From positions 38,604-102,603 of the forward strand of contig JAPOQZ010000254.1 in the NCBI GenBank assembly GCA_026710435.1: DNA of 64,000 nucleotides, written 5' to 3'. Below the pieces are notes generated by a model. That model worked only from the letters and a program-made list of their open reading frames with translations, did no database searches and was not told where the DNA came from. Below, in pieces: positions 40,505-60,103 of the stretch (positions are counted from its first letter, which is position 1; each line of letters begins with the position of its first letter). This DNA comes from a bacterium (GTDB lineage: Bacteria; Actinomycetota; Acidimicrobiia; Spongiisociales; Spongiisociaceae). The position numbers and the translations under genes were made by a program.

Positions 40505-40528
40505 CTCGAGCACTCGGCCGCTCCGTTG

Positions 40529-41815
40529 TCACGCGTCGATGGCGGTGAGGGTGTGAGCTCCCACCTGGTTCGTGCTGCACAGGTACGACCGGAGAGATAG
40601 GCGCAAGGGTCCTTTGGTGGGCCTTCCGTCTCGCAACCGGTCCGGACCCAGCGTCCGGGCTACTCCGGGCAGGTCGACGAGCTGGTCCCGGTTCCCCGAA
40701 CTGACCATGAGGTCGGCCTCGGGAACCGAGTCGACCAAGCCGGGGTCGGCACCGTCGTCTCCTGCCATCTCCTGCAGTACGAGAGCTGTGGGGATACGTG
40801 CCTTCTCGCACTCGCGGACGATGTCGAGAGCGTCGATGTGTGCGTTGCCGCCCACCGCCGGATGGGTCACGACGGCTTGGACGCCACGCTCCCGGAGCAT
40901 CTCGACTATCCGGGTGGCAGCCTTGTGCTTCTCGGAGTGGGATCCGTAGCGGAGGGTCAGGATGACACCCTCGAGAACCAGCCCCGACTTCTTCCTGATC
41001 GCTTCCACGACGGGGTTGCGCTGGTACAGCACCGTGGGCGTCCGCTGGCAGGAGAAGTGAAAGTCGGAACTGACCAGGGCGCCGTCCACGAGTTCCGGCA
41101 CGCTGATCCAGCGGGGCCGGAGTCGTTCGGTCGACTCGCCGTACAGCAACGTGTCGTGCAGCGGACCCTCAGAGATCACGGAGCATACGTAGGCGACACG
41201 GACGGCTTCCCTCTGGTCGTGGCGAGGATCACGGCTCACGAACTCCTCCACATCCTTCGACCCGGTCTCACTCGCTCGCTGCGCGAGGAATCGGGCTACT
41301 CGGATCGCCGCAAGACGCCTCACAGCCACTGGTTCCCGGACCCTCCGGTCGGAAGCCCGCCCGAACTCGACGACCAACTGGACGCCGCGAGAGAACGGCG
41401 AGTAGCGCGCACCGGGCCCCGCCATGTCCACGAGACAGTCCTCCTGCACGAACGTCTCGCCGCCTTCGGGTAGGCGGCCGACCGGTAAGACGGTGATCCC
41501 CTGCAGCGCATGGGTACGGCCCGACCTGACGGGATCCGGAGCGGTCCCGATGCCGGGAAAGGTGACCTGGGGGCTGCCCCGTCCCTTGGAACGCGGCTGG
41601 ATCACGTCGAGTATCCCGTTGATACGGACGCTCTCGCCGGGTCGGACGATGTGAAATCGCACGTCGGGAAGGCCCGGGTCGGTCCTCAGGAGGTCGAGCA
41701 GCTCGGTTCGGGAGACGATGAGAACCCCACCCGATGCCCCGGTTCTGTCCCCGAATCGGGCATCGTTCACATGATGGCTGACCAGGTCGACACCGTTCAA
41801 GCGGGTGAGTCCCAC
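40529..41815 (-). CDS. grdE: GrdE-like reductase component B subunit, paralogue 1
   Basis: 428 residues, the usual GrdE length. Conserved blocks are VRPGESVRINGILDVIQPRSK, TFPG, THALQGITVLPVGR, LVDMAGPGARYSPFS, and the C-terminal GGNAHIDALDIVRECE and SVPEADLMVSSGNRDQ. GrdE is the proprotein of the substrate-binding component of glycine, sarcosine or betaine reductase, cleaved at a Cys to create a pyruvoyl group. Here HFSCQRTPTVLYQRNP has Cys256, while paralogue 2 has Gly there. It overlaps the ABC ATPase by 19 bases, so it is the last gene of the minus-strand cluster. It has no GrdB partner of its own. Confidence 0.75.
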   Translation of the reverse strand: MGLTRLNGVDLVSHHVNDARFGDRTGASGGVLIVSRTELLDLLRTDPGLPDVRFHIVRPGESVRINGILDVIQPRSKGRGSPQVTFPGIGTAPDPVRSGRTHALQGITVLPVGRLPEGGETFVQEDCLVDMAGPGARYSPFSRGVQLVVEFGRASDRRVREPVAVRRLAAIRVARFLAQRASETGSKDVEEFVSRDPRHDQREAVRVAYVCSVISEGPLHDTLLYGESTERLRPRWISVPELVDGALVSSDFHFSCQRTPTVLYQRNPVVEAIRKKSGLVLEGVILTLRYGSHSEKHKAATRIVEMLRERGVQAVVTHPAVGGNAHIDALDIVRECEKARIPTALVLQEMAGDDGADPGLVDSVPEADLMVSSGNRDQLVDLPGVARTLGPDRLRDGRPTKGPLRLSLRSYLCSTNQVGAHTLTAIDA

Positions 41816-42825
41816 GCCTCGCCGATCCGTTCCCAAACCGACCGTGCGGACCCCCGGAGCCGCAATTCGTCATGTTCTTCGTGTCTGATACAGCGAACGC
41901 CGTGAGCATGCCCGATCAAAGTCCACGGGATCGGATCCTCGCAGCCTGCGGTTGCGAAGGGACAGCGGGCCCGGAACCGGCAGCCTGCAGGCCACTCGCC
42001 GGCGCCCGGGGGATGCCCGGGAATCGACACCGCTTCGATCTCGGCGCCGGTCTTCGGGATGGCGTTCACGAGCCCGATCGTGTACGGATGTGCAGGGCTG
42101 GCGAAGACATCCTCTACAGTCCCGGTTTCGACGATCTCCCCGGCGTACATGACCGCCACGTCGTCGCAGGACTCGACAATGATGCCCATGTCGTGGGAGA
42201 TCAGGATCATCGAGTTGCCGGCCGATCGCTGCAGGTCGACCAACTGGCCGAGGACTACATCCTGGGTTATCACGTCCAGCGCGGTCGTGGGTTCGTCGGC
42301 TATCACCAGATCGGGTTCCAAAGCGATCGCCATAGCGATTCCAACCCGCTGCTTCATTCCCCCGCTCAACTCGTGCGGGTAGCTTCTTGCCCGGTCGGCC
42401 TCGATACCCACCTTCCCCAGAAGTATCCGGGCGGTGGACCATGCCTCGCGCCTGGAAACAGGCCGGTGCCAGCGGATTGCCTCGGCGATCTGCGCCCCGA
42501 TCCGGTAGACGGGATCCAGGACGTTCATTGCTCCTTGGAACACCATGGACACGCGTTCCCACCGGTATCTCCTCAGGTCGGCGTCCTTGAGGGCCAGCAG
42601 GTCCACTCCGTCGAGTACCACCCGGCCGCGAGTGATCCGGCCGTTCTCGGGCAGCAGGCGGATCAGCCCCCGGGCAAGCGTGCTCTTCCCGCAGCCGGAT
42701 TCTCCGACTATTCCCAGGATCCTCCCCCGCTGCACCGTGAAGGTGGCATCGGAGACCGCTGTGAGCCACTCCCCATCGGAGCGGTAGTCGATCGACAGAT
42801 CGCTCACGGCTAGAAGTTCGGTCAT
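41797..42825 (-). CDS. oligopeptide-type ABC transporter ATP-binding protein (DppD-like)
   Basis: 342 residues. GESGCGKST, LSGGMKQRVGIAMA, LVIADEPTTALD and HDMGIIVESC mark the ATPase. The C-terminal oligo_HPY extension has the Cys-rich FeS-type motif (CRFRARCPFATAGC, later VRCI). It is one of the pair of ATPases, the partner being at 51061. It overlaps the DppC-like permease by ATGA at 42825. The longer frame to 43866 is a shadow of the permease gene. Confidence 0.88.
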   Translation of the reverse strand: MTELLAVSDLSIDYRSDGEWLTAVSDATFTVQRGRILGIVGESGCGKSTLARGLIRLLPENGRITRGRVVLDGVDLLALKDADLRRYRWERVSMVFQGAMNVLDPVYRIGAQIAEAIRWHRPVSRREAWSTARILLGKVGIEADRARSYPHELSGGMKQRVGIAMAIALEPDLVIADEPTTALDVITQDVVLGQLVDLQRSAGNSMILISHDMGIIVESCDDVAVMYAGEIVETGTVEDVFASPAHPYTIGLVNAIPKTGAEIEAVSIPGHPPGAGEWPAGCRFRARCPFATAGCEDPIPWTLIGHAHGVRCIRHEEHDELRLRGSARSVWERIGEAWDSPA

Positions 42826-43697
42826 GCCTTCTCCTTGGGGAGTTCCCTGGCGAGGCGGGGGTTGAGAACCTCCTCGAAGGGGCGGGTCAGAAAGAACATG
42901 GACGAGGTCACGACCGTGATCGCCAGTCCCGGAGCGATCATCCACCACCAACCCAGGTCGAGTGCGCCGCCGTCGAACGCCTTGCGGAGAATCGATCCCC
43001 AGCTCTGGGAGAGGGGATCTCCGAAACCCAGGAAGCTGATCGAAGCCTCGGCCAGGATGGCGTTTCCGAAAGCCACCGGTATGTAGACGAACGCCAGGGG
43101 AAGAACGAGCGGTATCAGGTGCCGGAACATGATCCGGCGGCTCGATGCGCCCGCCACCCGGGCAGCTTTGATGAAGGCGGTGTCGCGCAGCGTCAGCACC
43201 TGATTCCTGATGACGCGTGTCGGGCGTCGCCAGTACAGGAGGGAGATCGCCAGGATGAGGGTCCATCGGCTCGGACTTATGAGGGAGATGAGAACGATCG
43301 CCACCGGCTCGAATGGCAGGGAGTAGGCGATTTCCACGAACCGGGAGACGATGGTGTCGGTCGCTCCTGACCTGTAGCCGGCCACCACGCCCAGCAACAA
43401 TCCGAAGACGGTCGGGATCAAGGCTGCCCAGAAGCCGACGATCAGTACCGGGCGGGCGCCGGTGAGTATCTGGGAGAAGACGTCGCGAGCCAGGTCGGTT
43501 GTCCCGAACGGGTGACTCCAAGACGGGAACCTGAGCACGAGTGCGTCTCCGCCCTCGTCCCTGAGTATCTCTTGGGGGTCGTACGGAGCAAGTCCGGGGC
43601 CCAGAAGCGCCATCGCCACGAACAGCACGAGGACTGCCGCCGCCGTCAGCGCAACCTTGTCCCGCTGGAGCGCTCTCACGATTTGAGCCCAATACAT
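42822..43697 (-). CDS. oligopeptide-type ABC transporter permease (DppC-like)
   Basis: About 291 residues with an N-terminal cytoplasmic helix and six transmembrane segments. HPFGTTDLARDVFSQILTGAR is the typical DppC motif after the first helix. IKAARVAGASSRRIMFRHLIPL is the EAA loop. ATG 43697 follows GGGGGAT; a TTG at 43715 overlapping the upstream stop is an alternative. It is coupled to both the DppB-like and DppD-like genes. Confidence 0.87.
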   Translation of the reverse strand: MYWAQIVRALQRDKVALTAAAVLVLFVAMALLGPGLAPYDPQEILRDEGGDALVLRFPSWSHPFGTTDLARDVFSQILTGARPVLIVGFWAALIPTVFGLLLGVVAGYRSGATDTIVSRFVEIAYSLPFEPVAIVLISLISPSRWTLILAISLLYWRRPTRVIRNQVLTLRDTAFIKAARVAGASSRRIMFRHLIPLVLPLAFVYIPVAFGNAILAEASISFLGFGDPLSQSWGSILRKAFDGGALDLGWWWMIAPGLAITVVTSSMFFLTRPFEEVLNPRLARELPKEKA

Positions 43698-43711
43698 GCC
43701 GGATCCCCCGC

Positions 43712-44698
43712 TCAATCGGTCGAGGACCGACGACGGACGCGTGGATCGAGCAGGCTGGCCAGGAGGTCCGCAGCGAAATACACCACCAGCACGAGGACGG
43801 CGATGAAGAGAAAGGCTCCCTGGGCAACGGGATAGTCCCGAGCGTCGAGCGCGTGGACGATCTCACGACCGAGTCCCGGCCATGAGAACACGAACTCGAT
43901 GGCTACCAGTCCGCCGACAGCCCACCCGAGGAACTGCGAGCCTTCGGCGATCAGCGGCATCAGAGCGTTGCGGACTCCGTGCCGGAGCATCACAGCCCGC
44001 TCGGACAATCCCTTTGCCCGGGCGAGGTCGAGAAAATCCGCATGCTTCAGGTAGATCATCGTGTTCCGCATTATCAAGGCCGGGACGACATGCGCGTAGA
44101 GCGACCCGGTGATGACCGGCAGGATCAGATGCCTGAGGAAGTCGGCACTGGTGTAGATACGGAAAAGGTTCGTCTCCTCGAAGCCGCCGCTCCGCATTCC
44201 CGTAGACGGCAACCAGTCCAGGTTTATCGAGAAGATCAGGATCAGGATGACCCCCACGAAGAAGGTGGGTGCCCCTCTAACCAGGAGTTCCAGCGCACCG
44301 CCGACCCGCTCCACCCAGGTACCCCGCTTCCAGCCGAGCAGGGCGCCGACGAGGCCCCCGACCGTGAACGAGACCACGAAGATGCCGAGCACCAGAACCA
44401 GAGTGTTGGAGAAGGATCTGAAGATGACCTCGTTGACCGGACGGTTGGTCATCAACGAGGAACCGAGGTCGCTGGTTACCAGAGAACGCATGTACTTCAG
44501 GTACTGGAGCGGTAAGGGATCGTCCAGACCGTAGCGGTCGATGATCGTCTGCCGGAGTTCGTCGCTGGCGAGTGAGCCCACCATGATGTCGGCCGGGTTG
44601 CCGGGAATAAGCCTGAACAGGAAGAAGGCGATCGTAACGATCACGAACAGGTTGAGGGTCACGTATCCCAGCCGCCGCAGCATGTAGCCGGGTGTCAT
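43712..44698 (-). CDS. oligopeptide-type ABC transporter permease (DppB-like)
   Basis: 328 residues. MLRRLGYVTLNLFVIVTIAFFLFRLIPGNPADIM is the hallmark N-terminus of DppB. LDLARAKGLSERAVMLRHGVRNALMPL is the EAA loop, and the C-terminus has DPRVRRRSSTD. It lies 138 bases downstream of the RidA-fusion gene, with a hairpin between, and begins the permease-ATPase part of the cluster. Confidence 0.88.
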   Translation of the reverse strand: MTPGYMLRRLGYVTLNLFVIVTIAFFLFRLIPGNPADIMVGSLASDELRQTIIDRYGLDDPLPLQYLKYMRSLVTSDLGSSLMTNRPVNEVIFRSFSNTLVLVLGIFVVSFTVGGLVGALLGWKRGTWVERVGGALELLVRGAPTFFVGVILILIFSINLDWLPSTGMRSGGFEETNLFRIYTSADFLRHLILPVITGSLYAHVVPALIMRNTMIYLKHADFLDLARAKGLSERAVMLRHGVRNALMPLIAEGSQFLGWAVGGLVAIEFVFSWPGLGREIVHALDARDYPVAQGAFLFIAVLVLVVYFAADLLASLLDPRVRRRSSTD

Positions 44699-44761
44699 GT
44701 GCTCGATCCGAAGCCGGGGCAGTCGATTGCGCTCAAAGCACCGATTGTGTCTTCCTGAGGG

Positions 44762-44781
44762 CCCGCACGTTCAGGTGCGGG
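44762..44781 (-). terminator. hairpin between the RidA fusion gene and dppB-like gene
   Basis: CCCGCAC and GTGCGGG form a perfect 7-bp stem around a six-base loop. There is no T-run after it on the minus strand, so it may be a processing site or a weak terminator within the operon. Confidence 0.4.
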
Positions 44782-44836
44782 TACCCTGCGTAAGCCTCGA
44801 CCGTGCCCGAGCGAGTAGGCCACTGGGGACCCGATG

Positions 44837-46132
44837 TCACGGCGCGTACGCAACGGCATCCATCATGACCGTACACCCCGGCACCTGTAGCGGCCCGGGT
44901 ACCCCCGCCACTACGACACATGGAGGGTCAGATGGAATGTGCTCCCTGAGTCCCTTGTAGACGGCGTACCCGTCCTTTGGATCGGAGACGTAGGCCCTCA
45001 GCCGGAGAAGCTGGTCCAGGGTCGTCCCACCTGCGTGGCAAATGTCGCGAATCCGCCGGAAGAGGAAGTCCACCTGGCTGGACGCATCGGGCGCTGTCAC
45101 GAGACCTTGGGCTCCCCCGGCGAACTGGCCGGATATCCAGAGGAGATTCCCCGCCTTGACAGCAGCAGGGTCGATCCCGAGCTGGCCGTCCTCCAACTCG
45201 ATGATCTCCTTGACCGCCCCGTGACCCGGCCGGATCGACCTGAACTGGATCTCCATTTTCATAGCGCCTTCTTTGTGGTGCTTGGCGCCTTCCCAGCGCG
45301 GCGCACCCAACCCGCGTACCGGGGTGACGGTGCGGGCGGGTGGGTTGTCGCCGAACGCCTCCCCCCACACAAGGTCCAGTTCGTAGAGATCCTCGATCTC
45401 GACGAGTAGCACCGTGCAATGGACTGCGTTCTCTATAGACGTTCCGCCTGTTTCGAGCTTGCGGCGCAGGGCATCCATACCCCATAGCGCTTCGTTGCGG
45501 ATCTCCTGGCCCCACCAAACCCAATCCGGGAGTATCACGTCGGGATGGACTCCCGTTTCGTAGTCGGAGGCCCAGATTGTGCAGAAGACGTACGGCCCGG
45601 CAAGGACTACCTCGCTGAACGGAGCTTCGTGGGTGTAGCTGGGCCCGAACTCCGGGTACTTGCGAGCGTACGAAAGGCCCGTCGAGCGGATCTCCTTCTC
45701 CTCGAGGCCCGGGCGTGGCACGAACCCGAAGGCGCTCGGGGCCACCACCATCCCCTCTGGGATGAAGTCACCGGTCTCCATCAGAGCGCTGCTGGGACGG
45801 TTCCAATCCAGGAAGCCAGACCCGCGGCTGACCTCGAGATAGCCGTCGGCATGGGACTTCCACTGGATGTACTGCTCAACCTGAGAAACGTGCTGGAAGG
45901 TGGCGCCCAGGCCTTCGAGCAGTTCGCCATACCGCTCGAACACGTATCTCGTCTGGTTCCGAACATGCGCCGACGGGCTGAGGGTGTAGGGCGCCGGGAC
46001 CTGGACCTCGGGTGGCATCCGCCCGTGCTCGTCCACCGGCGGGCTCGCCATGAAGAACCAGTCACCTCCGCGCGCCATGCGCGACTGGTAGAGCCCGTTA
46101 CCGTCGATTGGTCCTGCCACATGCCGGCTCAT
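44837..46132 (-). CDS. triple RidA-domain fusion protein
   Basis: 431 residues. Three RidA/YjgF-like units can be seen in series: residues about 15-140 (WFFMASPPVDEHG, VFERYGELLEGLGATFQHVSQVEQYI), about 165-300 (VVLAGPYVFCTIWASD, LRRKLETGGTSIENAVHCTVLLVEIEDL, NPPARTVTPV) and about 305-431 (LLWISGQFAGGAQG, IRDICHAGGTTLDQLLRLRAYVSD). RidA proteins are normally homotrimers that hydrolyse reactive imines and enamines; this chain could be a pseudo-trimer by itself. The third unit is the most canonical, while the first two are diverged. It follows grdB by 128 bases, so a role in clearing imines from amine reduction is plausible. Confidence 0.75.
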   Translation of the reverse strand: MSRHVAGPIDGNGLYQSRMARGGDWFFMASPPVDEHGRMPPEVQVPAPYTLSPSAHVRNQTRYVFERYGELLEGLGATFQHVSQVEQYIQWKSHADGYLEVSRGSGFLDWNRPSSALMETGDFIPEGMVVAPSAFGFVPRPGLEEKEIRSTGLSYARKYPEFGPSYTHEAPFSEVVLAGPYVFCTIWASDYETGVHPDVILPDWVWWGQEIRNEALWGMDALRRKLETGGTSIENAVHCTVLLVEIEDLYELDLVWGEAFGDNPPARTVTPVRGLGAPRWEGAKHHKEGAMKMEIQFRSIRPGHGAVKEIIELEDGQLGIDPAAVKAGNLLWISGQFAGGAQGLVTAPDASSQVDFLFRRIRDICHAGGTTLDQLLRLRAYVSDPKDGYAVYKGLREHIPSDPPCVVVAGVPGPLQVPGCTVMMDAVAYAP

Positions 46133-46260
46133 CCTGTCTCCCTATCTGTTCCTCTGCCGATAGAAACGGTACAGGCCGGAGTTCTTCCCCGGACGTTCGA
46201 CCGATGCGCGCAGTCGAAGCAGCGAACCCCGTACCACTCCCGTAGCCGTGCCCCGTCGCT

Positions 46261-47583
46261 TCACGAAGCCTGGCGCACCGTCTGGCTCGCGATTCTCTCG
46301 GCGAGAACCTCCAGCGCCCGCGCCACCATCTGCCTGCGTATCTCCCTCTCCTGTTCGCGTTCCATTTCGGGTGCGCCCAGCGGGTGGGCAATGGCTCTAC
46401 CGACCACGATCCGGTTCGCTCCGATGTTGCCCGCTACAGAGGGCATCGGGGTGATGAGCACGGTCGGTATCCCGGCCGCATCGATTTCCCGTGCCAGCGT
46501 TGCCCCGCAACGCGTTCCCGTCCCTCAGGTGGCCGTGAGGATGGCCGCCTGGATCTGGTTTCCGATGAGGTCCGCGGCAATCTCCCGACCGATCCTCTCG
46601 GCGTCGGCGATCGCCATGGTCATACCGGTCGTGATGTAGTACCGCTCGTGGAGGCGGCCGAACAGCCCGGCCCGCTCGAACTCGCGGAGCACGTCCAAGG
46701 GAATGGCCCGGTTCGGATCCGCGGAGATGGGGGTGTTGTCGAACCCCCCGTGGATGGTCTCGTAGCCGTTGCCCGACAACTCGTCGAGATCGTCGAGAGG
46801 GTACGTGAGCCACCTCCGGCTCCGGGCTGACTCGAGACGGTCGGGATTGCCCTTGGGAACCACGCCGGCCTCCGAGACTATCGCAAGCGTCAGGTCTCCC
46901 AGCGGAGCGGGCAGCTGCGACGGAGGAACCCGGTGGTAGACCGGTAGAGGTATCTCGGTCTCGAACGGCTCGCCACGTAGCTTCCGCACCAACAACTCCA
47001 CTGCCCTCTCCGCGGCGTTCCGTTCGGAGAACGTGTTCTGGCGGATCCCGCGCGGGATGAATCCCTCGTCTGCCGCGGTTCCGAGCCGACAACCACGGAC
47101 CATGCGTTCACCCAGACGGACCATGCGTCCCATCGCGTCTCGCATCCCGGCCGCGCTCGGGCCGGTCGGCACCGCGTAGACCTTCGTGCGCTCCACGTCG
47201 ACTCCAGGGTTCTCTGGATGCAGGCCGGTTACTGCTGCAACACCCGCGCCGGACAGCGACGCACATATGCCGGCACTGGCGACACCGTACCGCCCGGCCT
47301 GAAACGCCGGCCCGACCACCACCAGGTCCGGTCGGTGGTCCAGGATGAGTCGGGTGACATCCTCAACCGCGACGTCATGGTCCGCCATGTGGTCGTCGCC
47401 GGCGATGACGGTGGCCACGACCCTGCCCCGATCGCCCAGCAGTTGCTGGAGGAGCCTGCCCGCTCCTACCGGGCCTTCGGCCACGTAGGGCGGAGTGGAG
47501 GCGGCCTCCTCCCCGCCGCGGCCACCGAAGAACTGGTTCAGGTAACTGACGACTCTGATCTTGTCGTTCGTGACTGTGTTCAT
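46261..47583 (-). CDS. grdB: GrdB-like selenoprotein (component B, selenocysteine by UGA)
   Basis: 440 codons including an in-frame TGA at 46525-46527 (codon 353). Upstream the product reads VVSYLNQFFGGRGGEE, VVVGPAFQAGRYG and GNQIQAAILTAT. After the TGA the same frame continues GTGTRCGATLAREIDAAGIP, then GANRIV and AIAHPLG to 46261. This is the GrdB active site, with selenocysteine at the known position in a protein of the usual 435-440 residues. GrdB with GrdE removes ammonia or an amine from the substrate and passes a carboxymethyl group to GrdA. The Cys three residues after Sec in well-known members is Gly here; the one six residues after is kept. The start overlaps the grdE stop (ATGA). 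A SECIS-type hairpin follows the UGA. Confidence 0.88.
46497..46513 (-). promoter_or_regulatory. SECIS-like hairpin for grdB
   Basis: On the minus strand GCGTTGC-GGG-GCAACGC forms a perfect 7-bp stem with a three-base loop. The loop begins 18 bases after the UGA at 46527-46525. This meets the usual bacterial SECIS pattern: a stem just after the UGA, and a small apical loop with G in its first two positions. It lies within the coding frame. Confidence 0.7.
46525..46527 (-). other. grdB: selenocysteine UGA codon of grdB
   Basis: TGA in frame within ILTAT-U-GTGTRCGATL. The family position, the continuing homology for 87 codons after it and the following hairpin all favour read-through as selenocysteine over termination. 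Confidence 0.85.
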
Positions 47584-48884
47584 GACAGGGTTGCTCCTAT
47601 CCGCCATGCCCCCATCTGGTTGTTCGACCCCACGATCGTTCGGAGCGGCACCCGCAATTCGCCGCCGGCGTCCATCCCTCCACTCTCGTCCTCGGGTCCG
47701 TCGAGCAGCCGGACCCCTCCGAGGACGGTTCCGGTTGGGGCTAGCAGGATCAGTTCCTCTCGGTTTCCAGTCGAGACCATCAGATCCGCCTCCGGGACCG
47801 TGTCGACCATACCCGGATCGGCTCCGGTGGAGCCGGCCATCTCGACAATGGAGAGCACGGTCGGGATGCCCCTGCGCTCGCATTCACGCACCGCGTACAT
47901 GACATCGAGATGGGCATTCCCGCCTGCCACCGCGGAGACCACGACACCCCCCGCACCGGCAAGCTCCGCGAGTTGGGCCGCGAACGCGGCTCCGGTGGTC
48001 TTCTTCGTGTCATCCCGCCCCACCGGGAGAAGGATCGTCCCGAGGAATTCGAAGCCTCCCGCGTCGACGCTCTCCTCGACCGGATTCGACTGGTAGTAGC
48101 AGGTGTAGTTTCGTTGACCCGCATAGTGGTAGTCCGCCGACACCACCGCACCTCCGGCCAGCGCCAGGGGAGACAGCGTGGTCGGGAGCATGTCACGCGC
48201 CGACCGTCCGGCTATCAGCGTGTCGAACAGTGATCCGAAGGCCGAGACCTCGCAGATATGTATCAGGCGCAGGCGGCGGCTGTGAACCTGTCCCGAATCG
48301 GGTGTGGGTCCACGGTGTCCGGAAAGCTCGTCGAGACCGAGTTGGTGGGCGACCACCTCACCGATGTGTCTGGCCACCCGCAGAGCGGCGGTTCTGTAGG
48401 CCTCGGCCGCCGTCGCCGGCGCCGTCTCAGGGTCTACGGATAGTTCCAGCACTACATGGGGTTCGCGGGTGAGCGGCGACAGCTCGGCGGATTCGTCCCT
48501 CATCTCGAGGACACCTTCCTGCTGGGTGAAGAACGAGTCGACGGCCGGTATCACGCCCAGCACGGTGACTTTCACTCCGTTGACCCGGAGAACAGGCCCG
48601 CGCCCCAACTGTGCGGCCGAGGTGAGAATGCCGGGGAATACGGCCTGGTTCCCGCCGCCCATCCGGGAGACGGGCTGCACAACGTCGAGCACGTGCACGA
48701 GACGGATGTCGTCTCCCGGGTGCACGAGGTGAACACGAGCCTGATCGATGCGGACATCCCTCGTCACCACCCGCGCCAGTTCCAACGGATCGAGGATCAA
48801 CCGGCCATCAACCAGGCGGGTACGTGATCCGGTGTCGACACCGGCGATATCCACATCGACGATGCCGCCGACCCTCCGCATCAT
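47580..48884 (-). CDS. grdE: GrdE-like reductase component B subunit, paralogue 2
   Basis: 434 residues. LVHPGDDIRLVHVLDVVQPVSR, VFPG, VNGVKVTVLG, IHICEVSAFGSLFDTLIAGRS, GGNAHLDVMYAVRECE and TVPEADLMVSTGNREE follow the GrdE pattern. It is coupled to grdB by ATGA, so the two form the component B pair. In the processing region the text is YHYAGQRNYTCYYQSNP. The position aligned with Cys256 of paralogue 1 is Gly256, and a Cys sits at 262. Whether this Cys can yield the pyruvoyl group is open. ATG 48884 is chosen because it opens before the family start; the longer frame to 48947 has no support. Confidence 0.78.
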   Translation of the reverse strand: MMRRVGGIVDVDIAGVDTGSRTRLVDGRLILDPLELARVVTRDVRIDQARVHLVHPGDDIRLVHVLDVVQPVSRMGGGNQAVFPGILTSAAQLGRGPVLRVNGVKVTVLGVIPAVDSFFTQQEGVLEMRDESAELSPLTREPHVVLELSVDPETAPATAAEAYRTAALRVARHIGEVVAHQLGLDELSGHRGPTPDSGQVHSRRLRLIHICEVSAFGSLFDTLIAGRSARDMLPTTLSPLALAGGAVVSADYHYAGQRNYTCYYQSNPVEESVDAGGFEFLGTILLPVGRDDTKKTTGAAFAAQLAELAGAGGVVVSAVAGGNAHLDVMYAVRECERRGIPTVLSIVEMAGSTGADPGMVDTVPEADLMVSTGNREELILLAPTGTVLGGVRLLDGPEDESGGMDAGGELRVPLRTIVGSNNQMGAWRIGATLS

Positions 48885-48971
48885 CTCGCTTCTGCGTCCA
48901 ACGCACCGGCCGGAGTGGCGCAGACTAGGAAACCCTTCGGCGCCCAACCTGCTCGCTCAACGAACAAGAGC

Positions 48972-49001
48972 AAGGGTGGGGACATCAGTGACCCCACCCT
49001 T
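48972..49001 (-). terminator. terminator after the solute-binding protein gene
   Basis: AAGGGTGGGG and CCCCACCCTT form a perfect 10-bp stem with a ten-base loop, 14 bases beyond the binding-protein stop. On the minus strand GCTCTTGTT follows. It would raise the ratio of binding protein to the downstream grdE and grdB products. Confidence 0.65.
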
Positions 49002-49014
49002 CGTTCCTTCGCTC

Positions 49015-50823
49015 CTAGCCATTGTAATGGAGTTGCGGCATGTGGTTCTCCGGATAATGGAGATTGCCTTCGTCATCCCAGCGGTACCCGGCATCCTCCA
49101 GAATCTGCCTAGCCTTTCCTGGATCGTATTGATGCCAGTGAGGCTCGCCGTCGGGTCGCTCCTCGTGCGGGATGTTCGGGTTCTGCCAGAAAGTATTCCC
49201 AGGCCCGATAGTCCCCTGTCCGGGGGCTCCGTAGCCCTGGAGGATGACGTCCACCGTGGTTGCGTAGTCGTACGTGTGGGCCAGAGCATGCCTGAGGTGA
49301 TAGTCCTGGAACGGCGAGTCGTCTCTCATACTGAAAGCAGTCCACCGGTCCGTGATACCCCCTACCTCGCCGAGTTCCAGGTGGGCCTCGTTAGCGGCCT
49401 GCGTAGCGCCCGCCGGGGTGAGGCTCGCCACCTGGTGGAAGTAGATGGTCCCATCCTGGAGCGCCCGGAACACCGCCTGGTTATCGGCCAGGTAGAGGGT
49501 CAGATGACCCTCGGACGCGGGCGGATCGAAATGGTCATCGTTCCTCGTCAACTCCACGGCCTCGCTGGAGACGCTCTTCACCGTGTACGAACCGCTACCG
49601 ATCATGTTGGTCTCGGTCCACTCGGCAGGATGGGTAAGGCCTTGGTCGGCGATGACATTCTCCCAAATGTGCTTCGGCAGAATCGGTACCTGTGACAGTG
49701 CCCCGGAGGTAATGGTGGCCGTAGGGCCGGACAGGTTGATCCTGATGGTGTGGGGGTCGACTACCTCGACCGACTCAACAGGTGCCAGGGCATTCTGGTA
49801 GAGACCCACCTCCCATTCCTTGAGGTAGTCAAAGCTGAACTTCACATCCTCTGCGGTCACCGGCGCCCCATCCGTGAACGTCATGCCCGACCGGATCACG
49901 ACCTCGACGACCGAAGGATCCGGAAAACTCCAACTCTCGGCTGCCCACGGGACGACCTTGCCGGTCGGGTCCGGTTTCGCGAGGCTGTCGTAGATCAGGT
50001 TGTGGATCTCGACGTCGCTGTCGTAGTCGTTGGCCGCTGTGGGGTTGATCGACCGGAAGAATCCCTCGATCGCGATGCGGTAGATCTTGTCATCCCCGAT
50101 GGGTTCGGCGCCCACGAAATTCCAGAAGTTGTACAGACCGGTCCCTACGCCCGGTATCACGTTCGTATACGCATCCTTGTTCCACGTGTACACCTCGGAG
50201 GGGTGATAGGAAACGACGACCGGGATGTCGAGTGCTTGTATCTCCTGCAGTTTCCACACCAGTTCACGTCGTGCCTCTACGTCAAGCTCAACCTTGGAGG
50301 CTTCCAGAAGGGTGTCGTACTCTTCGAAGACCCAGTCTCCGTAGTTGCTGGAGCCGGCGAACTCGCCATAGAGCGGACGGGACAGCAATTGGTCCGGATC
50401 GATCCGGAAGATGTTGCCGACGTAGCCGGCGGCTGCCATGTCCCAGTCACGGAGTTCTGCTGCTGCAGAGAAGCTCCCCCAGTCGGGAACCAGATTCGTC
50501 TCGACCGTGAGCCCGAGCTTTGCCCACTCCTCGAACATGCGGTTGTTGGCTTCGAAGTGTGGGGACTCGTACCCGGCGGACGGGCCCATGAAGCGTATGG
50601 TTGGCACTCTCGTCGCATCGGTGAGTTCGGCTTCCATCGCCATGGCTGCTGTAGTGGTCGGCTCGGCCTCCTGGGCTGCAGCCGTTGTGGCGGCTGCCTG
50701 GGTTGCCGCCGTGGTCTCCTCGGTGTCCTCGGAACCGCACGCCGCGGCCACCAACGCACACACGGCGAACACGATCAACACGCCATGGCGCAGATACGGT
50801 TTGTCGTTGCGGCGAACTGTCAT
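49015..50823 (-). CDS. family-5 solute-binding lipoprotein with circularly permuted order
   Basis: 602 residues. The lipoprotein signal ends at LVAAAC (Cys29), followed by an Ala/Thr-rich linker to about residue 70. Residues 73-240 resemble the C-terminal part of SBP_bac_5 proteins: FEEWAKLGLTVETN (usually before 'G-I-x-V'), RDWDMAAAGY, IDPDQLLSRPL, ARRELVWKLQEIQALDIPVVVSYHP. Residues 246-602 resemble the N-terminal part: IYRIAIEGFFRSINPTAAND, LIYDSLAKPDP, WAAESWSF, GMTFTDGAPVTAEDVKFS, YDPGKARQILEDAGY. The chain ends where a normal protein would continue into residue 73. The halves are therefore in reverse order within one uninterrupted frame. GGAGGGA lies eight bases before the ATG. It probably serves the DppBCDF-like subunits nearby. 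Confidence 0.8.
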   Translation of the reverse strand: MTVRRNDKPYLRHGVLIVFAVCALVAAACGSEDTEETTAATQAAATTAAAQEAEPTTTAAMAMEAELTDATRVPTIRFMGPSAGYESPHFEANNRMFEEWAKLGLTVETNLVPDWGSFSAAAELRDWDMAAAGYVGNIFRIDPDQLLSRPLYGEFAGSSNYGDWVFEEYDTLLEASKVELDVEARRELVWKLQEIQALDIPVVVSYHPSEVYTWNKDAYTNVIPGVGTGLYNFWNFVGAEPIGDDKIYRIAIEGFFRSINPTAANDYDSDVEIHNLIYDSLAKPDPTGKVVPWAAESWSFPDPSVVEVVIRSGMTFTDGAPVTAEDVKFSFDYLKEWEVGLYQNALAPVESVEVVDPHTIRINLSGPTATITSGALSQVPILPKHIWENVIADQGLTHPAEWTETNMIGSGSYTVKSVSSEAVELTRNDDHFDPPASEGHLTLYLADNQAVFRALQDGTIYFHQVASLTPAGATQAANEAHLELGEVGGITDRWTAFSMRDDSPFQDYHLRHALAHTYDYATTVDVILQGYGAPGQGTIGPGNTFWQNPNIPHEERPDGEPHWHQYDPGKARQILEDAGYRWDDEGNLHYPENHMPQLHYNG

Positions 50824-51060
50824 CTCGGGTCCCTCCCTCGGGTACGGGAATCCGATGGTATACCCGCGATGGCTCGCCCGGCTTGACTGGCTGAGGTTTT
50901 CTTGCTAGCTGGAATCGGGATGCCGGTTCGGTTCCGAATCCCCCGAACCGACGCCCCGCGCCGGGTAGTACCGACTACCGCCGATGTGCCCGACTTCCCA
51001 TGGCAGCGTGACCCGAGGCGAATCGAACAAGTGTTGAGACCGGACAGGGACCCGTGCTGC

Positions 51061-52107
51061 CTACATCGAGAGAACGTCTGCCGAGACAGGACTGGCATCC
51101 GGGGTGAAAAGGTGGCAGGCCACCCAGTGATCCTGATCGACGGTCACCGGTTGCGGCCGAACAGAATCGCACACGTCCATCCTCTCGGGGCAGCGTGCGA
51201 CAAACGGGCAGCCGTCCGATAGAGCCGAGCCGGCCTCGTCAATCGAGAGGCGTACCCGTTCTCGCTCGACTCCCGGATCGGCCACCGGGATGGCCGAGGC
51301 CAGGGCTCTCGTGTATGGATGGAACTGCTCGACCATGACCCGGTTGGCGGGGCCGACCTCGACGAGGTGGCCGAGGTACATGATGGCGATCCGGTCGCAC
51401 ACGTAACTGAGAGTCGTGAAATCGTGGGAGATGAAGAGAAGCGACATCTGCATCGACTTCTGCAGGTCCCGGATCAGATTGAGAATCCCGGCCCGGACCG
51501 ACACATCCAGCATGGTGGTCGGCTCATCGGCGATCAGGAGCTCGGGACCGAGGATGAGGGCTCGGGCGATAGCGACCCGTTGGCGTTCCCCGCCGCTCAG
51601 CTCGAACGGGTACTTGCTGACGAATCTATCGGCAGGGACAAGACGAACTCGTTCGAGACTCTCCATCACCCGGCGATGCCTGTCGGAGTCAGTCCCTACC
51701 TTGTGGATCTCCAAAGGCTCCACCACCAACTTCCCGACGCGTTTCTGGGGGTTCAGGGAGTCGAAGGGATCCTGGAACACCATGCTCACCGAACGCCGGA
51801 AGCGGGCGCTCCTGGTACGCGGTACCTGCCCGGTCATGGACTCGCCCTTGAACAGGACGCTCCCCGAAGTCGGCTGCTGCAGACCCGCAACCACTTCGGC
51901 GGTAACGGTCTTGCCCGAACCGCTCTCTCCAGCAAGCCCGAGTGCTTCGCCTGCCCGGATAACGATCGAGACACGGTCGACAGCTTTGAGGTAGTTCCTG
52001 TCGGCCCTCTTAAGGATCTCGACCAGTGTGCGACGGCGCGGGAACCACTTGCTGAGCGAACGGGCCTCAAGAAGGGAACCGGCCGCTTCCGTTGTCGATG
52101 AGAGCAC
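51061..52107 (-). CDS. oligopeptide-type ABC transporter ATP-binding protein (DppF-like)
   Basis: 348 residues. GESGSGKTV, FELSGGERQRVAIARAL, LLIADEPTTMLDVSV and ISHDFTTLSYVCDRIAIMYLG mark the ATPase. The oligo_HPY C-terminal Cys motif reads CPFVARCPERMDVC. It completes the set with the DppB-, DppC- and DppD-like genes at 41.8-44.7 kb, although it is placed between the binding protein and grdA. A 237-base gap (50824-51060) downstream holds no feature apart from the ribosome binding site of the next gene. The start is probably GTG 52107. Confidence 0.86.
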   Translation of the reverse strand: MLSSTTEAAGSLLEARSLSKWFPRRRTLVEILKRADRNYLKAVDRVSIVIRAGEALGLAGESGSGKTVTAEVVAGLQQPTSGSVLFKGESMTGQVPRTRSARFRRSVSMVFQDPFDSLNPQKRVGKLVVEPLEIHKVGTDSDRHRRVMESLERVRLVPADRFVSKYPFELSGGERQRVAIARALILGPELLIADEPTTMLDVSVRAGILNLIRDLQKSMQMSLLFISHDFTTLSYVCDRIAIMYLGHLVEVGPANRVMVEQFHPYTRALASAIPVADPGVERERVRLSIDEAGSALSDGCPFVARCPERMDVCDSVRPQPVTVDQDHWVACHLFTPDASPVSADVLSM

Positions 52108-52260
52108 ACCGCAGTGTACCGGACAGGGTGGCTCGACAGCGTGGATGGTGCAGTCTTAGATCGTTGTGCGCCGATTGCCGGGAGCCGGTACCGGGTGCTG
52201 CGTAGCGCCCGGTGGCGCCGGGGCCGAGTGTTGAGTAGCCGCCAGGTTTCCTCGGCTACA

Positions 52261-52713
52261 TCACTGTCTGTACATCGACACCCACTTGATGATCTCGTCC
52301 ACATCCGCCGAGAGTTCCATGAGCCCGACGTGTTCGTCGTAGAGAACCTCGTCGACCTGTTGCTTTATCTCGGGTTCCAATACGTGATATACAGGAAGTC
52401 CCAACGGGACTCCGGCCAACGGACCTGCCCAACTCGGGTCGCCTCTGGTCACGGTCTCCGCAAAGAGACCGGCACTGTTGGCGTCCGGTTGTCCGAGCAG
52501 CACCACCATGTTGTCGGTGCCGGAGGTCTCTGCCAGGCGATTGACGTTCGCCTGGTCCTCCAGGTCCATGGCGCCTCCCGCTGTTCAGACGAAACACTCG
52601 GTAACGCTGAACACGACGGTGGCGCCGGCCGACTCGGCCAGGAGCTTGAGGCTAGGGCCGTTGACCCCGTCCCGCTCACCGATCGCCACCACCCGTTTAC
52701 CCTCCAGATCCAT
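52261..52713 (-). CDS. grdA: GrdA, selenoprotein A of glycine/sarcosine/betaine reductase
   Basis: 150 codons from ATG 52713, with an in-frame TGA at 52585-52587 (codon 43). The N-terminus reads MDLEGKRVVAIGERDGVNGP and the active site TVVFSVTECFV-U-TAGGAMDLED. Downstream are NMVVLLGQPDANSAGLFAETV, GDPSWAGPLAGVPLGLPVYHVLEP and an acidic C-terminus. This is the full GrdA layout, with the CFVUT motif at the right place. GrdA carries the carboxymethyl group from component B to component C as a selenoether. A conventional call would start at the ATG 52569 after the UGA and lose the redox centre. A SECIS-like hairpin follows. Confidence 0.92.
52551..52564 (-). promoter_or_regulatory. SECIS-like hairpin for grdA
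   Basis: On the minus strand CCTGG-AGGA-CCAGG forms a 5-bp stem with a four-base loop. The loop starts 25 bases after the UGA, and G is its second base. Position and shape fit bacterial SECIS elements, although the stem is short. Confidence 0.55.
52585..52587 (-). other. grdA: selenocysteine UGA codon of grdA
   Basis: TGA in frame between CFV and TAGGAMDLE. It is the invariant selenocysteine position of GrdA, and coding continues for 107 codons after it. Confidence 0.9.
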
Positions 52714-52766
52714 CCAATTCCCTTTCTCGTTTCGCGATAGCGTACGCGTACTCAGCCGCCTACCTC

Positions 52767-52872
52767 TAGGAGGGTGCTGAACAATGACGATTGCTCGGGC
52801 CTGCCGCCCGCCAGCCCAGGCATTTTTGCCGGCGGTTGGCAGGCCGCTGGTGGATTGCTCAGCACCCTCCTA
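52767..52872 (+). mobile_element. 106-bp inverted-repeat element, family 1, copy A
   Basis: The perfect 14-base terminal inverted repeats are TAGGAGGGTGCTGA and TCAGCACCCTCCTA. Between them are blocks such as ACAATGACGATTGCTC and a central palindrome-like region. The reverse complement of the element at 59971-60075 is about 90 percent identical by eye. It has no coding capacity. It lies in the 354-base gap 52714-53067 between grdA and the protease-like gene; the rest of the gap shows nothing else. Confidence 0.8.
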
Positions 52873-53067
52873 ACCACTTCGGTCGTTGCTAACCGGTGAC
52901 ACAGGGTCCGGACCACATTCCTGAGTACCGGCAGGACTGCTATCCCCGCTTCCCTACAAAGGCTCCGGGAAACCCAGGGCGCGTTCACGCCACATGCGGT
53001 CGGTACGGTACTGCGGCATCAAACTCGCTTCCAACTCACGGAGAGGAGCCAGTAGGAGATCAGGCGT

Positions 53068-53484
53068 CTACAGCCTGAGCACCGGCGCGTCCGGCGCTTC
53101 AGGCCGGGGACCCAGAGTCTGGTTACGGCAATCGGCGACCAGGTCGAGCTCCTCCATGACAATCTGGCCGATCAACGCTTCCGTACCGGGCGGCGTCACG
53201 ACGCAGCGAGCGAACGTCCAGCGGTCACCGATATGCACGGTCAGGGGACCGGCGATCGGCAGCTCGCCTCGCCGCCCGTCCGCGTAGGCAACGGGGCCGG
53301 TTCCCACAACCTCGACACCGAGCCGTTGCACGACTTCCTCGGGGAGCGCGAGCATCACCGCGCCCGTATCCGCAACAGCGCTGACCGTGGCCCGGCGGAC
53401 ATCGGCTTCCTGAAGGAATCCCTTGCCAGCCAGCCCGCGGTCTACCGCGTTCTCCAACTCGACATCAACGACGATCTCACCCAC
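53068..53484 (-). CDS. retropepsin-like aspartic protease domain protein
   Basis: 138 residues. ATVSAVADTGAVMLALPEEVVQRLG contains the DTGA catalytic motif of clan AA aspartic proteases. TEALIGQIVMEELDLVAD matches the second conserved block (IG-x-x-x-L-x-x-L). One catalytic Asp per chain implies a homodimer. Similar small proteins occur near toxin-antitoxin or unrelated genes in many bacteria and their substrates are unknown. A role in processing a GrdE proprotein would be speculation, since GrdE processing is thought to be autocatalytic. Confidence 0.72.
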   Translation of the reverse strand: MGEIVVDVELENAVDRGLAGKGFLQEADVRRATVSAVADTGAVMLALPEEVVQRLGVEVVGTGPVAYADGRRGELPIAGPLTVHIGDRWTFARCVVTPPGTEALIGQIVMEELDLVADCRNQTLGPRPEAPDAPVLRL

Positions 53485-53574
53485 GGTTCGACTTCCTCCT
53501 CGGTATACTTACACGCTGAGAGTCTGCTGTTGCCCCAGGTTTAGATGATATAGACACATATAGTGATTTCTAAC

Positions 53575-55020
53575 TCATGCGAATCCGGGCTCGGCCACAA
53601 CGTCGGTGTGGCCTTCCACTATGAAGGACACACCATCGACCAACTGTGTCATTCTCCCCAGAAAGAGGCTGCCTTTGGCGACTATCATCGCCCGAGCCAA
53701 ATCCCCGCGGCGCATCGCCTCTTGTGCATGGCCCAGGTACGGGACTCCGGCCGGAATGTGGCCCTGGGTAGGAGCGAACCCGGGCATCCCGCGCTCCGCC
53801 ACGAACCGGTCCATGTCTCCCCTTCCGATCTCCCCCCGCAGAACCGCCATCGCCGCCAGGGTCCGGTAGTTGGCCCTGGGTACGTCCCCGCTACCACCGG
53901 GTTCGGTGATCTCCGGGTTGTGCATTTCGACCGCGTACCTATCGACATCCGTCAAGCCGAGGCCGGCCTTCGCGAGTGGGTCGACGACAAGCGCCTCGTA
54001 GACAGCCCGGGCCGAGGATCCGGCCCCTATGGGATGCTTGCCCGTCATGTCGAGCCGGAGTTTCATGGCACCCTTCTCGGACGGACCCACCAGAAAGGCC
54101 ATGGAAGCCAGGCAGTCCTCCATGACCGGAACGCCGTTGCGGAGGTGAGCCCGGAACTTCATGCCCAGCTTGGCGAGCGAGCCACCACCCATCACCAGAA
54201 CGTAGTCGTAGAGGCCGGCCGCCACCATCGCTCCGGCCGCGATCAGAGCGTGCACCGGTGCGGAACAGAACGCCTTGAGGTCTGACCCGGTGGCGTTCAC
54301 ACATCCGACCACCTCCCCGACGGCTTTGGACAGGCTGCCGCCACCCCGCTGGTAGCGGTCACCCACTGCTTCCTCCCCGCTGTTGAGCAGGTAGTCGATT
54401 CGACCTGCCGGAAGGCTGTTCCTTCGCAGGAGGTCAGACACTGCCAGAACCGCGGTTGCCTTGCAGGCCAGGTTCTCCAGTAGCACCGAGGCAGCCAGCG
54501 AAGCGTCCTGCTCGTGTGCCGTGCGGATGAAGCCTGCCACCCGGTTCTGGTAGTGGAGGGGTAGGCCGTGCTCATTCGCTACGAGGGACTCGATCTCGGA
54601 AGCCGGGACCCCGGTGATACGCCCCGCCCGGTGATCGAAGTGGTCGAGTTGGGCGGCGGCGACTTCGGCCAACTCCTCGTCGATGGTCAGCAGATCGAAG
54701 TCGTCGCACAGCTTCATGAGGCCGTACAGCGCCGCCTGGGTGACCATGCGTCCGAACGGGCCGTCGGTGTGGGCCGCTTCAAGTCGGTTCTCGTACCAGG
54801 GGCGGGGGATGGAGTCGAGTTCCCGAGGGTCGAGGTTGCCGACGAACACCTGGTTGGGTGGGTAGCCAACGACTTCCCTCCAAGGGCGCAGCGCCCGGTC
54901 GAGGTCCAACAGAAGCGACGGCTCCCTACCGGTCTCACGAACAGGTTTGGATCCGTACCGGACGAGGTCGGGAGCGTGGGCGAGCGCGTAGGAGGTGCTG
55001 AGAATGGCAGGTGTCGGCAT
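53575..55020 (-). CDS. grdC: GrdC, component C beta subunit of glycine reductase-type complex
   Basis: 481 residues. TSYALAHAPDLVRYGSKPVRE, VGYPPNQVFVGNLDP, PRPWYENRLEAAHTDGPFG and LYGLMKLCDDFDLLTIDEEL are GrdC signatures. The core then follows a ketoacyl-synthase-III-like plan, with VGCVNATGSDLKAFCSAP and YVLVMGGGSLAKLGMKFRAHL. Component C releases acetyl phosphate from carboxymethyl-selenoprotein A. The alpha subunit GrdD is not in the window. ATG 55020 gives the family start; the longer frame to 55068 adds 16 unsupported residues. It is the first gene of the minus-strand grd cluster. Confidence 0.85.
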   Translation of the reverse strand: MPTPAILSTSYALAHAPDLVRYGSKPVRETGREPSLLLDLDRALRPWREVVGYPPNQVFVGNLDPRELDSIPRPWYENRLEAAHTDGPFGRMVTQAALYGLMKLCDDFDLLTIDEELAEVAAAQLDHFDHRAGRITGVPASEIESLVANEHGLPLHYQNRVAGFIRTAHEQDASLAASVLLENLACKATAVLAVSDLLRRNSLPAGRIDYLLNSGEEAVGDRYQRGGGSLSKAVGEVVGCVNATGSDLKAFCSAPVHALIAAGAMVAAGLYDYVLVMGGGSLAKLGMKFRAHLRNGVPVMEDCLASMAFLVGPSEKGAMKLRLDMTGKHPIGAGSSARAVYEALVVDPLAKAGLGLTDVDRYAVEMHNPEITEPGGSGDVPRANYRTLAAMAVLRGEIGRGDMDRFVAERGMPGFAPTQGHIPAGVPYLGHAQEAMRRGDLARAMIVAKGSLFLGRMTQLVDGVSFIVEGHTDVVAEPGFA

Positions 55021-58333: not shown

Positions 58334-58344
58334 CCAGCCTTGTG

Positions 58345-60075: not shown

Positions 60076-60103
60076 GACAGTCCCGCGGTCGCAGAGGGAA
60101 GGG

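What the first reader, a model, noticed from the sequence alone, without database searches (positions are those of the whole stretch)
40529..55020. Selenoprotein glycine-reductase-type cluster merged with an oligopeptide ABC transporter
Minus-strand order: grdC, aspartic protease, grdA, DppF-like, binding protein, grdE, grdB, triple RidA, DppB-, DppC- and DppD-like, second grdE. Classical grd clusters are known from anaerobic Clostridia with grdD, thioredoxin and betaine or glycine transporters. Here a complete peptide-type transporter and an imine-handling protein are embedded, and grdD and thioredoxin genes are missing. The substrate may be an unusual N-substituted amino acid, betaine or peptide.
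Basis: partly seen in the sequence, partly recalled or inferred. Interest (0 to 1): 0.9.

Follow-up and report, generated by a model that had tools for sequence, protein, structure and literature searches.

The report
GrdD-less selenoprotein reductase with peptide importer
This bacterial genome carries a glycine-reductase-type cluster with two selenoprotein genes but no detectable gene for GrdD, the usual acetyl-phosphate-forming subunit, as do all 79 other genomes checked that hold a related GrdC; a 12.8-kb block with a peptide-type importer, likely acquired, probably lets it reductively split an unknown nitrogen compound and would hand on the two-carbon product in a new way.

Summary
Minus-strand order is DMT, GrdC, aspartic-protease-like, GrdA (Sec), DppF, binding protein, GrdE1, GrdB (Sec), triple-RidA, DppB-C-D, GrdE2; all frames are intact. 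SelA, SelB and tRNA-Sec are in the genome, so the stated refuters fail. (2) GrdD is found in 0 of 395 class genomes (own included) and 0 of 79 further genomes holding a related GrdC, while two GrdD-bearing records rang at 549-581 bits. Their GrdC keeps a KAS III-like Cys in 86 of 86, with His383 in 80 and His447 in 86; four GrdC with a partner GrdD have Gln and Phe. (3) Both GrdE lack the Asn-Cys pyruvoyl site. (4) The binding protein is circularly permuted, as are 81 of 120 listed homologues. I read it as a variant of the glycine/sarcosine/betaine reductase kind with a plug-in substrate module, whose C2 product probably leaves GrdC as a thioester. Substrate and chemistry are untested.

The parts
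55134..56093 (-). EamA/DMT exporter (DMT2), first gene of the locus
   Evidence: PF00892 100.8 bits; syntenic in L081
53575..55068 (-). GrdC (protein C beta), KAS III-like Cys268, His383, His437, His447 in the 497-aa ORF
   Evidence: NF040746 590.6 bits over cut-off 450; residues; Cys segment aligned to KAS III
53068..53484 (-). clan AA aspartic-protease-like protein between GrdC and GrdA, where many relatives have a thioredoxin
   Evidence: TIGR03698 44.5 bits, below cut-off 57.35; 86% DNA identity in L081; thioredoxins
52261..52713 (-). GrdA selenoprotein, TGA at 52587-52585 (CFVU)
   Evidence: TGA in 83 of 83 other GrdA stretches
39449..52224 (.). 12.8-kb block absent from the otherwise collinear locus L081
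51061..52107 (-). DppF-type ATPase
   Evidence: PF00005, PF08352
49015..50823 (-). SBP_bac_5 binding lipoprotein, circularly permuted (C-terminal lobe first)
47580..48947 (-). GrdE1 (likely start at 48881), no Asn-Cys processing site
   Evidence: PF09338 225 bits; alignment
46261..47583 (-). GrdB selenoprotein, TGA at 46527-46525 (UGTGTRC)
   Evidence: TIGR01918 445.7 bits; TGA in 78 of 78 other GrdB stretches
44837..46132 (-). triple-RidA single-chain protein; Arg267 of the middle domain invariant
43712..44698 (-). DppB-type permease
   Evidence: PF00528 120 bits
42822..43715 (-). DppC-type permease
   Evidence: PF00528, PF12911
41797..42786 (-). DppD-type ATPase (stretch as scanned; true start may lie slightly upstream)
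   Evidence: PF00005, PF08352
40529..41836 (-). GrdE2, second GrdE paralogue without its own GrdB
   Evidence: PF09338 266 bits; sister to the GrdE1 clade, support 0.984
39470..40504 (+). Amidohydrolase_2, opposite strand, at the far edge of the block
   Evidence: PF04909 96.8 bits
38514..39476 (-). second EamA/DMT exporter (DMT1)
   Evidence: syntenic in L081
37397..38494 (-). zinc alcohol dehydrogenase, linked to grdCA in order relatives
36054..37397 (-). FGGY-family sugar kinase, linked to grdCA in order relatives
35254..36039 (-). DeoC/LacD-family aldolase, linked to grdCA in order relatives

Best explanation
The locus encodes a glycine-reductase-type selenoenzyme that has GrdA, GrdB, GrdC and two GrdE paralogues but no detectable GrdD, with a peptide-type importer in the same block; it likely takes up an N-substituted glycine-like compound, would split its C-N bond with the GrdB selenocysteine, and is predicted to leave the two-carbon product as a thioester on GrdC rather than as acetyl phosphate. 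Shown: intact genes, both selenocysteine codons and their conservation, the Sec machinery, no GrdD match here or in any related genome checked, a shared set of GrdC residues that differs from GrdC that has a partner GrdD, no pyruvoyl site in GrdE, and the block nature of importer + RidA + GrdB + GrdE. Inferred: that the Dpp-type importer brings the substrate; that GrdE1, GrdE2 and GrdB form one protein B; that Se-carboxymethyl-GrdA forms as in Clostridia; that GrdC alone releases the acyl group, most simply to CoA; and that the triple-RidA protein hydrolyses an imine or enamine by-product.
For: GrdA, GrdB, GrdC and GrdE families; SelA and SelB on C124, tRNA-Sec on C237. GrdD: none in the own genome, 0 of 395 class genomes (own included) over cut-off, best 37.7 bits against 350, 0 of 79 distinct genomes behind the 80 GrdC loci at E 1e-20 or better, with Acetoanaerobium noterae (581 bits) and Photobacterium DA100 (549 bits) as positive controls. 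GrdC: Cys268 in 86 of 86, His383 in 80 of 86, His447 in 86 of 86, against Gln and Phe in 4 of 4 that have a grdD beside them; Cys segment aligned to KAS III. Many other GrdD-less clusters carry a thioredoxin gene near grdC/grdA (trxA match in 32 of 106 sequences), so they look like working thiol-driven reductases. No Asn-Cys site in GrdE1 or GrdE2, as in betaine GrdI. Dpp-type transporter or binding-protein genes near Grd genes in 9 of 80 GrdC loci. GrdE1, permuted SBP and triple-RidA relatives share contigs by length.
Against: No substrate, product or activity is tested. GrdC could pass its acyl group to a phosphotransacetylase, or an unrelated protein could replace GrdD. Only four GrdC with GrdD (two of them Enterococcus) anchor the residue contrast, and 6 of 86 GrdD-less GrdC lack His383. 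The segment with His383 aligns only weakly to the KAS III catalytic-His segment (E 0.028) and not residue on residue. Six GrdD-less loci keep the GrdE Asn-Cys site. Binding proteins near Grd genes in other phyla are not of the permuted type where checked. The genome has 7.6% contamination; the contigs were tied to the window only by composition, which sister genomes match as well, and by a shared repeat that was not seen on the SelA/SelB contig stretch.
Confidence: 0.47

Rival explanations
1. An ordinary sarcosine- or betaine-type reductase that still ends in acetyl phosphate, with the GrdD role filled by an unrelated or housekeeping enzyme such as phosphotransacetylase.
For: GrdB is nearest to sarcosine GrdF among three references (42.5% identity; 441.8 bits against that model's cut-off of 800); GrdA and GrdC are above their curated cut-offs.
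Against: No GrdD over cut-off in 395 class genomes and none at E 1e-20 in 79 more; GrdC residues changed in step; neither GrdE has the processing site that GrdG has.
Confidence: 0.25
2. The B proteins attack a non-amine alpha-substituted acetate (halo-, sulfonio- or ether type), as fluoroacetate reductase FarBE does; the importer and RidA serve other ends.
For: FarE is the second NCBIfam match of both GrdE; FarE and GrdI are described as lacking the two processing cysteines (PMC10838667, passages).
Against: FarE scores 95.9 and 62.1 against a cut-off of 675; no radical SAM or antiporter family among the scanned genes of the block; peptide-type importer and RidA point to nitrogen chemistry.
Confidence: 0.12
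3. The true unit is the whole locus with ADH, FGGY kinase and DeoC-type aldolase: the substrate is a sugar- or polyol-linked glycine or amine, and the Grd step frees the sugar part for the kinase and aldolase.
For: grdE-grdB-grdC-grdA-ALDH-ADH-FGGY-DeoC is conserved in order relatives (L042, L043, L044, L045, L046, L048; L049 without a detected ALDH) and GrdC-GrdA-DMT-ADH-FGGY-DeoC in L081.
Against: FGGY and DeoC matches lie in only 8 of the 80 GrdC loci, some of which are short; no match to the ALDH in the window; the block brings its own importer.
Confidence: 0.12
4. A decaying or assembly-made assortment without joint function.
For: Block absent from L081 and triple-RidA found in 1 of 395 class genomes, its own; a genome with 7.6% contamination.
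Confidence: 0.04

Closest known systems
Glycine/sarcosine/betaine reductase (Grd) of Acetoanaerobium, Peptoclostridium acidaminophilum and Enterococcus
   Same: GrdA with CxxU, GrdB with Sec, GrdE-family partner, GrdC beta subunit, Sec machinery.
   Different: No GrdD found, no thioredoxin genes in the window, GrdB UxxGxxC instead of UxxCxxC, no Asn-Cys site in GrdE (also missing in betaine GrdI), two GrdE for one GrdB, Dpp importer and triple-RidA in the same block.
Fluoroacetate reductase FarBE (Cloacibacillus)
   Same: Variant protein B without pyruvoyl processing site and with altered CxxC after Sec (PMC10838667, passages).
   Different: Scores far below the FarE cut-off; no radical SAM protein or MFS antiporter among the scanned genes; feeds a GrdD-less A/C pair here.
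Dpp/Opp/Nik peptide ABC importers
   Same: Two permeases, two ATPases with oligo_HPY, SBP_bac_5 lipoprotein.
RidA/YjgF imine deaminases; chorismatases
   Same: RidA fold, PAR-motif arginine in the middle domain (motif role recalled).
   Different: Three RidA domains in one chain; the best fold match is chorismatase, itself longer than a single RidA.

Membership tests
Glycine/sarcosine/betaine reductase complex (Grd) | GrdA selenoprotein with CxxU | tested here: met
   NF040748 205.2 bits, CFVU
Glycine/sarcosine/betaine reductase complex (Grd) | GrdB family with in-frame UGA | tested here: met
   TIGR01918 445.7 bits; U353
Glycine/sarcosine/betaine reductase complex (Grd) | UxxCxxC motif in GrdB | tested here: not met
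   UGTGTRC: first Cys is Gly; references have UGTCTRC
Glycine/sarcosine/betaine reductase complex (Grd) | GrdE/GrdG proprotein with Asn-Cys pyruvoyl site (not a feature of betaine GrdI) | tested here: not met
   SADYHY and SSDFHF where GrdE and GrdG have SGNCVS/SGNCVA
Glycine/sarcosine/betaine reductase complex (Grd) | protein C beta subunit GrdC | tested here: met
   NF040746 590.6 bits, cut-off 450
Glycine/sarcosine/betaine reductase complex (Grd) | protein C alpha subunit GrdD, acetyl-phosphate step | tested here: not met
   0 in own genome, 0 of 395 over cut-off, 0 of 79, controls positive; the genome is 95% complete
Glycine/sarcosine/betaine reductase complex (Grd) | selenocysteine machinery | tested here: met
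   SelA 368.7, SelB 344.9, tRNA-Sec 73.7 bits; SelD not searched
Glycine/sarcosine/betaine reductase complex (Grd) | specific substrate subfamily (GrdB, GrdF or GrdH) | tested here: not met
   403.5, 441.8 and 392.4 bits against cut-offs 602, 800 and 775
Glycine/sarcosine/betaine reductase complex (Grd) | reductive amine release and acetyl transfer | not testable with these tools
   needs biochemistry
Fluoroacetate reductase FarBE | FarE equivalog score | tested here: not met
   95.9 (GrdE2) and 62.1 (GrdE1) bits against 675
Dpp/Opp ABC importer | two permeases, two oligo_HPY ATPases, SBP_bac_5 | tested here: met
   SBP in permuted order
RidA/YjgF | RidA fold and catalytic Arg | tested here: met
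   PF01042 67.4 bits, model, R267 invariant in 45; catalytic role recalled
KAS III (FabH) acyltransferases, for GrdC | active-site Cys segment | tested here: met
   hmmsearch 3il6 E 5.1e-5; hhalign to FabH of relatives E 3.9e-5
KAS III (FabH) acyltransferases, for GrdC | catalytic His in the C-terminal half | tested here: inconclusive
   weak alignment, E 0.028, His383 not placed on FabH His245

The most novel reading that the evidence does not exclude
GrdD-less Grd systems are an unrecognised, multi-phylum branch of selenoprotein reductases in which GrdC itself finishes the reaction as a KAS III-like acyltransferase, turning Se-carboxymethyl-GrdA into an acyl thioester (acetyl-CoA or a new C-C bond) instead of acetyl phosphate. 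Sec-dependent C-N cleavage would then serve carbon and nitrogen assimilation in non-fermenting bacteria, and cassettes such as this 12.8-kb block, with a two-GrdE protein B and a circularly permuted binding protein, would plug new substrates into the shared GrdA-GrdC core.
Probability: 0.35. Interest if true: 0.88.

Novelty: new variant of a known kind. Interest (0 to 1): 0.72.

Why it matters
Glycine reductase is the textbook selenoenzyme of amino-acid fermentation, and its value to the cell is the acetyl phosphate made by GrdC-GrdD. A branch found in records named from about ten phyla that keeps both selenoproteins and GrdC but shows no GrdD asks what else that chemistry is for, and it can be tested by purifying one protein (GrdC). 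The locus also shows how a substrate module with its own importer sits on the core, and it uncovers a circularly permuted family of peptide-type binding proteins.

Tried and rejected
Ordinary grd cluster with grdD elsewhere in the genome: rejected. Decayed frames or stop-codon artefact: rejected. Sequence-only SECIS evidence: weak; RNA folds after both UGA codons do not beat shuffles (z -0.70 and -0.20), so Sec rests on conservation and machinery. GrdE1-type loci in GTDB r220 contigs: 23 stretches matched a pattern, none confirmed. Catalytic His of GrdC as the KAS III His: not established. Permuted SBP near Grd genes in other phyla: five loci match only from residue 273 on (L093, L116, L135, L139, L140) and L097 has the usual lobe order. 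Triple-RidA context in class genomes: only the own genome at E 1e-60, with at most four candidates scored per genome; none on plasmids. GrdC on phages: none. Permuted SBP neighbours for a substrate hint: mixed (tripartite transporter and GntR regulator genes upstream in Nitratireductor, creatininase family and M20 hydrolase in Halalkalicoccus, gamma-glutamylcyclotransferase in Maritalea). Papers: no listing for 'glycine reductase' with 'Acidimicrobiia' or 'SAR202'; of 12 papers listed with grdC, grdD and glycine reductase I saw passages of only two (PMC10838667, PMC9908766); no paper held all four terms for a permuted oligopeptide binding protein, and the 8 papers and the lists were otherwise seen as listings only. 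PMC13188914, PMC9751293, PMC1088965, PMC2398784 and PMC10298544 were seen as passages only; PMC9751293 has no occurrence of GrdC or GrdD in its main text.


Full report
The locus. The window is contig C141:38604-102603 of a 4.91-Mb, 270-contig genome (95.3% complete, 7.6% contamination). On the minus strand lie DMT2, GrdC, an aspartic-protease-like gene, GrdA, DppF, a family-5 binding protein, GrdE1, GrdB, a triple-RidA gene, DppB, DppC, DppD and GrdE2, then (plus strand) an amidohydrolase, then DMT1, alcohol dehydrogenase, FGGY kinase and DeoC-type aldolase. GrdA and GrdC pass their NCBIfam equivalog cut-offs; GrdB passes the general family model but none of the glycine, sarcosine or betaine models.

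Selenocysteine. GrdA has TGA at 52587-52585 and GrdB at 46527-46525. The codon is TGA in 83 of 83 GrdA and 78 of 78 GrdB stretches found in 95 other loci. SelA and SelB lie side by side on C124 and tRNA-Sec on C237. Both contigs match the window in G+C and tetranucleotides (r 0.983 and 0.986), but so do a sister-family-member genome (0.983) and L081 (0.988), so this does not separate near relatives. C237 carries four copies of a palindromic repeat that also sits beside grdA; none was seen on the C124 stretch held.

A block. L081, a locus of MAG RHO1_bin_3, is collinear with window 30784-59939, short spacers aside, except for 39449-52224. In L081 GrdA is followed directly by DMT1. The missing 12.8 kb hold DppF, SBP, GrdE1, GrdB, RidA, DppBCD, GrdE2 and the amidohydrolase. 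G+C of the block (0.640) lies between that of the flanks (0.658, 0.631), so gain is likely but loss in L081 is possible. The triple-RidA gene was found in 1 of 395 class genomes, its own. Relatives of GrdE1, SBP and triple-RidA occur on contigs of the same length in the protein database: 5 GrdE1-SBP, 3 GrdE1-RidA and 9 SBP-RidA pairs, one contig length shared by all three (lengths, not names; part of the SBP and RidA rows used).

The older locus. In six same-order regions grdE-grdB-grdC-grdA is followed by an aldehyde dehydrogenase, alcohol dehydrogenase, FGGY kinase and DeoC aldolase (L042, L043, L044, L045, L046, L048), with a DMT gene upstream in four of them; L049 lacks a detected ALDH (16 regions examined). 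GrdE-family genes were found in 19 of 138 order genomes and 24 of 395 class genomes, own included. Of these 80, 8 carry FGGY and DeoC matches and 9 carry Dpp-type transporter or binding-protein matches near Grd genes (L093, L097, L099, L105, L116, L135, L139, L140, L141); the binding proteins there that I checked are not permuted.

No GrdD. The GrdD model finds nothing in this genome and nothing over its cut-off in 395 class genomes; the best, 37.7 bits against 350, are partial matches that I take to be PlsX relatives (recalled). In the genomes behind all 80 GrdC loci (79 distinct) none reaches E 1e-20; many are MAGs of unstated completeness. The same search rings at 581 and 549 bits in Acetoanaerobium noterae and Photobacterium DA100, and three GrdD proteins match none of 106 sequences (window and 105 loci) at E 1e-3. 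A thioredoxin like that of Acetoanaerobium matched 32 of the 106 sequences, in many of them between or next to grdC and grdA, and a thioredoxin reductase matched 7; the window has neither and carries the aspartic-protease-like gene between grdC and grdA.

GrdC. Cys268, in a segment that aligns with KAS III, is kept in 86 of 86 GrdC without GrdD and in 4 of 4 with GrdD. Position 383 is His in 80, Gln in 4, Glu in 2 of the 86, and Gln in 4 of 4 with GrdD; position 447 is His in 86 of 86 against Phe in 4 of 4 (six duplicate loci and one fragment, L066, were left out). GrdD beside the four references: two by the model, one as annotated, one by BLAST. Two of the four are Enterococcus, so the contrast rests on three lineages. 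That GrdC alone handles the acyl group is inference; equivalence of His383 with the KAS III histidine was not established.

GrdE. Acetoanaerobium GrdE has its cysteine 242 in SGNCVSAC; in C. difficile the pyruvoyl peptide of GrdE spans residues 242-266 (PMC9908766, passages). P. acidaminophilum GrdG has the motif too, betaine GrdI of E. gilvus does not. GrdE1 (SADYHY) and GrdE2 (SSDFHF) lack it, as do 72 of 78 GrdE from other loci in the aligned place. FarE and GrdI are described as lacking the processing cysteines (PMC10838667, passages). GrdE2 with one relative is sister to the GrdE1 clade (support 0.984); the two are 36% identical, which suggests an old pair serving one GrdB.

The binding protein. 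Its residues 95-213 match the C-terminal lobe and 250-590 the N-terminal part of DppA-type proteins. Of the 120 homologues listed (318 found), 81 are collinear with it through the N-terminal lobe; two more start just later and one is a fragment; the other 36 have their best match within 249-601, five of them with the lobe matched near their C-terminus. The model (pLDDT 89.9) puts about 240-595 on roughly residues 1-360 of solved binding proteins. In plasmids, 31 records cover 80% or more of it in one place, the 15 best being alphaproteobacteria and haloarchaea, so the order is no assembly error.

Reading. The block would import a compound, GrdB with GrdE1/GrdE2 would cleave it through selenocysteine, GrdA would carry the carboxymethyl group and GrdC would accept the acyl product; RidA would clear an imine or enamine. 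All these steps are inferred from families, and whether the host is an aerobe was not tested. A 2026 review describes the enzyme as an acetyl-phosphate-forming system of anaerobes and says that aerobic bacteria rarely retain selenoproteins (PMC13188914, passages). A survey of GrdBE names neither GrdC nor GrdD in its main text (PMC9751293, passages). I found no description of GrdD-less systems in the searches listed under Tried and rejected; most subscription papers are not held.

Noticed in passing
52760-52880; 59971-60077: A multi-copy ~107-bp palindromic (REP/MITE-like) element, fold -71.5 kcal/mol (z -6.65); further copies on contigs C237, C202, C265, C241 and C140.
   Followed up: partly
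49015-50823: The binding protein belongs to a circularly permuted branch of SBP_bac_5 that also occurs in named alphaproteobacteria and haloarchaea.
   Followed up: yes
L041:1665-4287 (G000 C265): A second GrdE-GrdB pair (UGTGTRSG, no Cys after Sec) without a grdA or grdC match in the same 16-kb stretch, with like pairs in related genomes L050-L053 and L067-L069.
   Followed up: partly
29798-34940: BMP-type lipoprotein with a dual-domain ABC ATPase and two permeases beside the aldolase (by eye); a similar-looking ABC set follows grdD in Acetoanaerobium (L161).
   Followed up: no
58342-59955: GlcD-like FAD oxidase, syntenic with L081 beside the Grd locus.
   Followed up: no
4191-4273: SAM riboswitch, 63.4 bits.
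   Followed up: no
L103, L112, L123, L136, L138, L160: Six loci keep the GrdE Asn-Cys motif although no GrdD was found in their genomes.
   Followed up: partly
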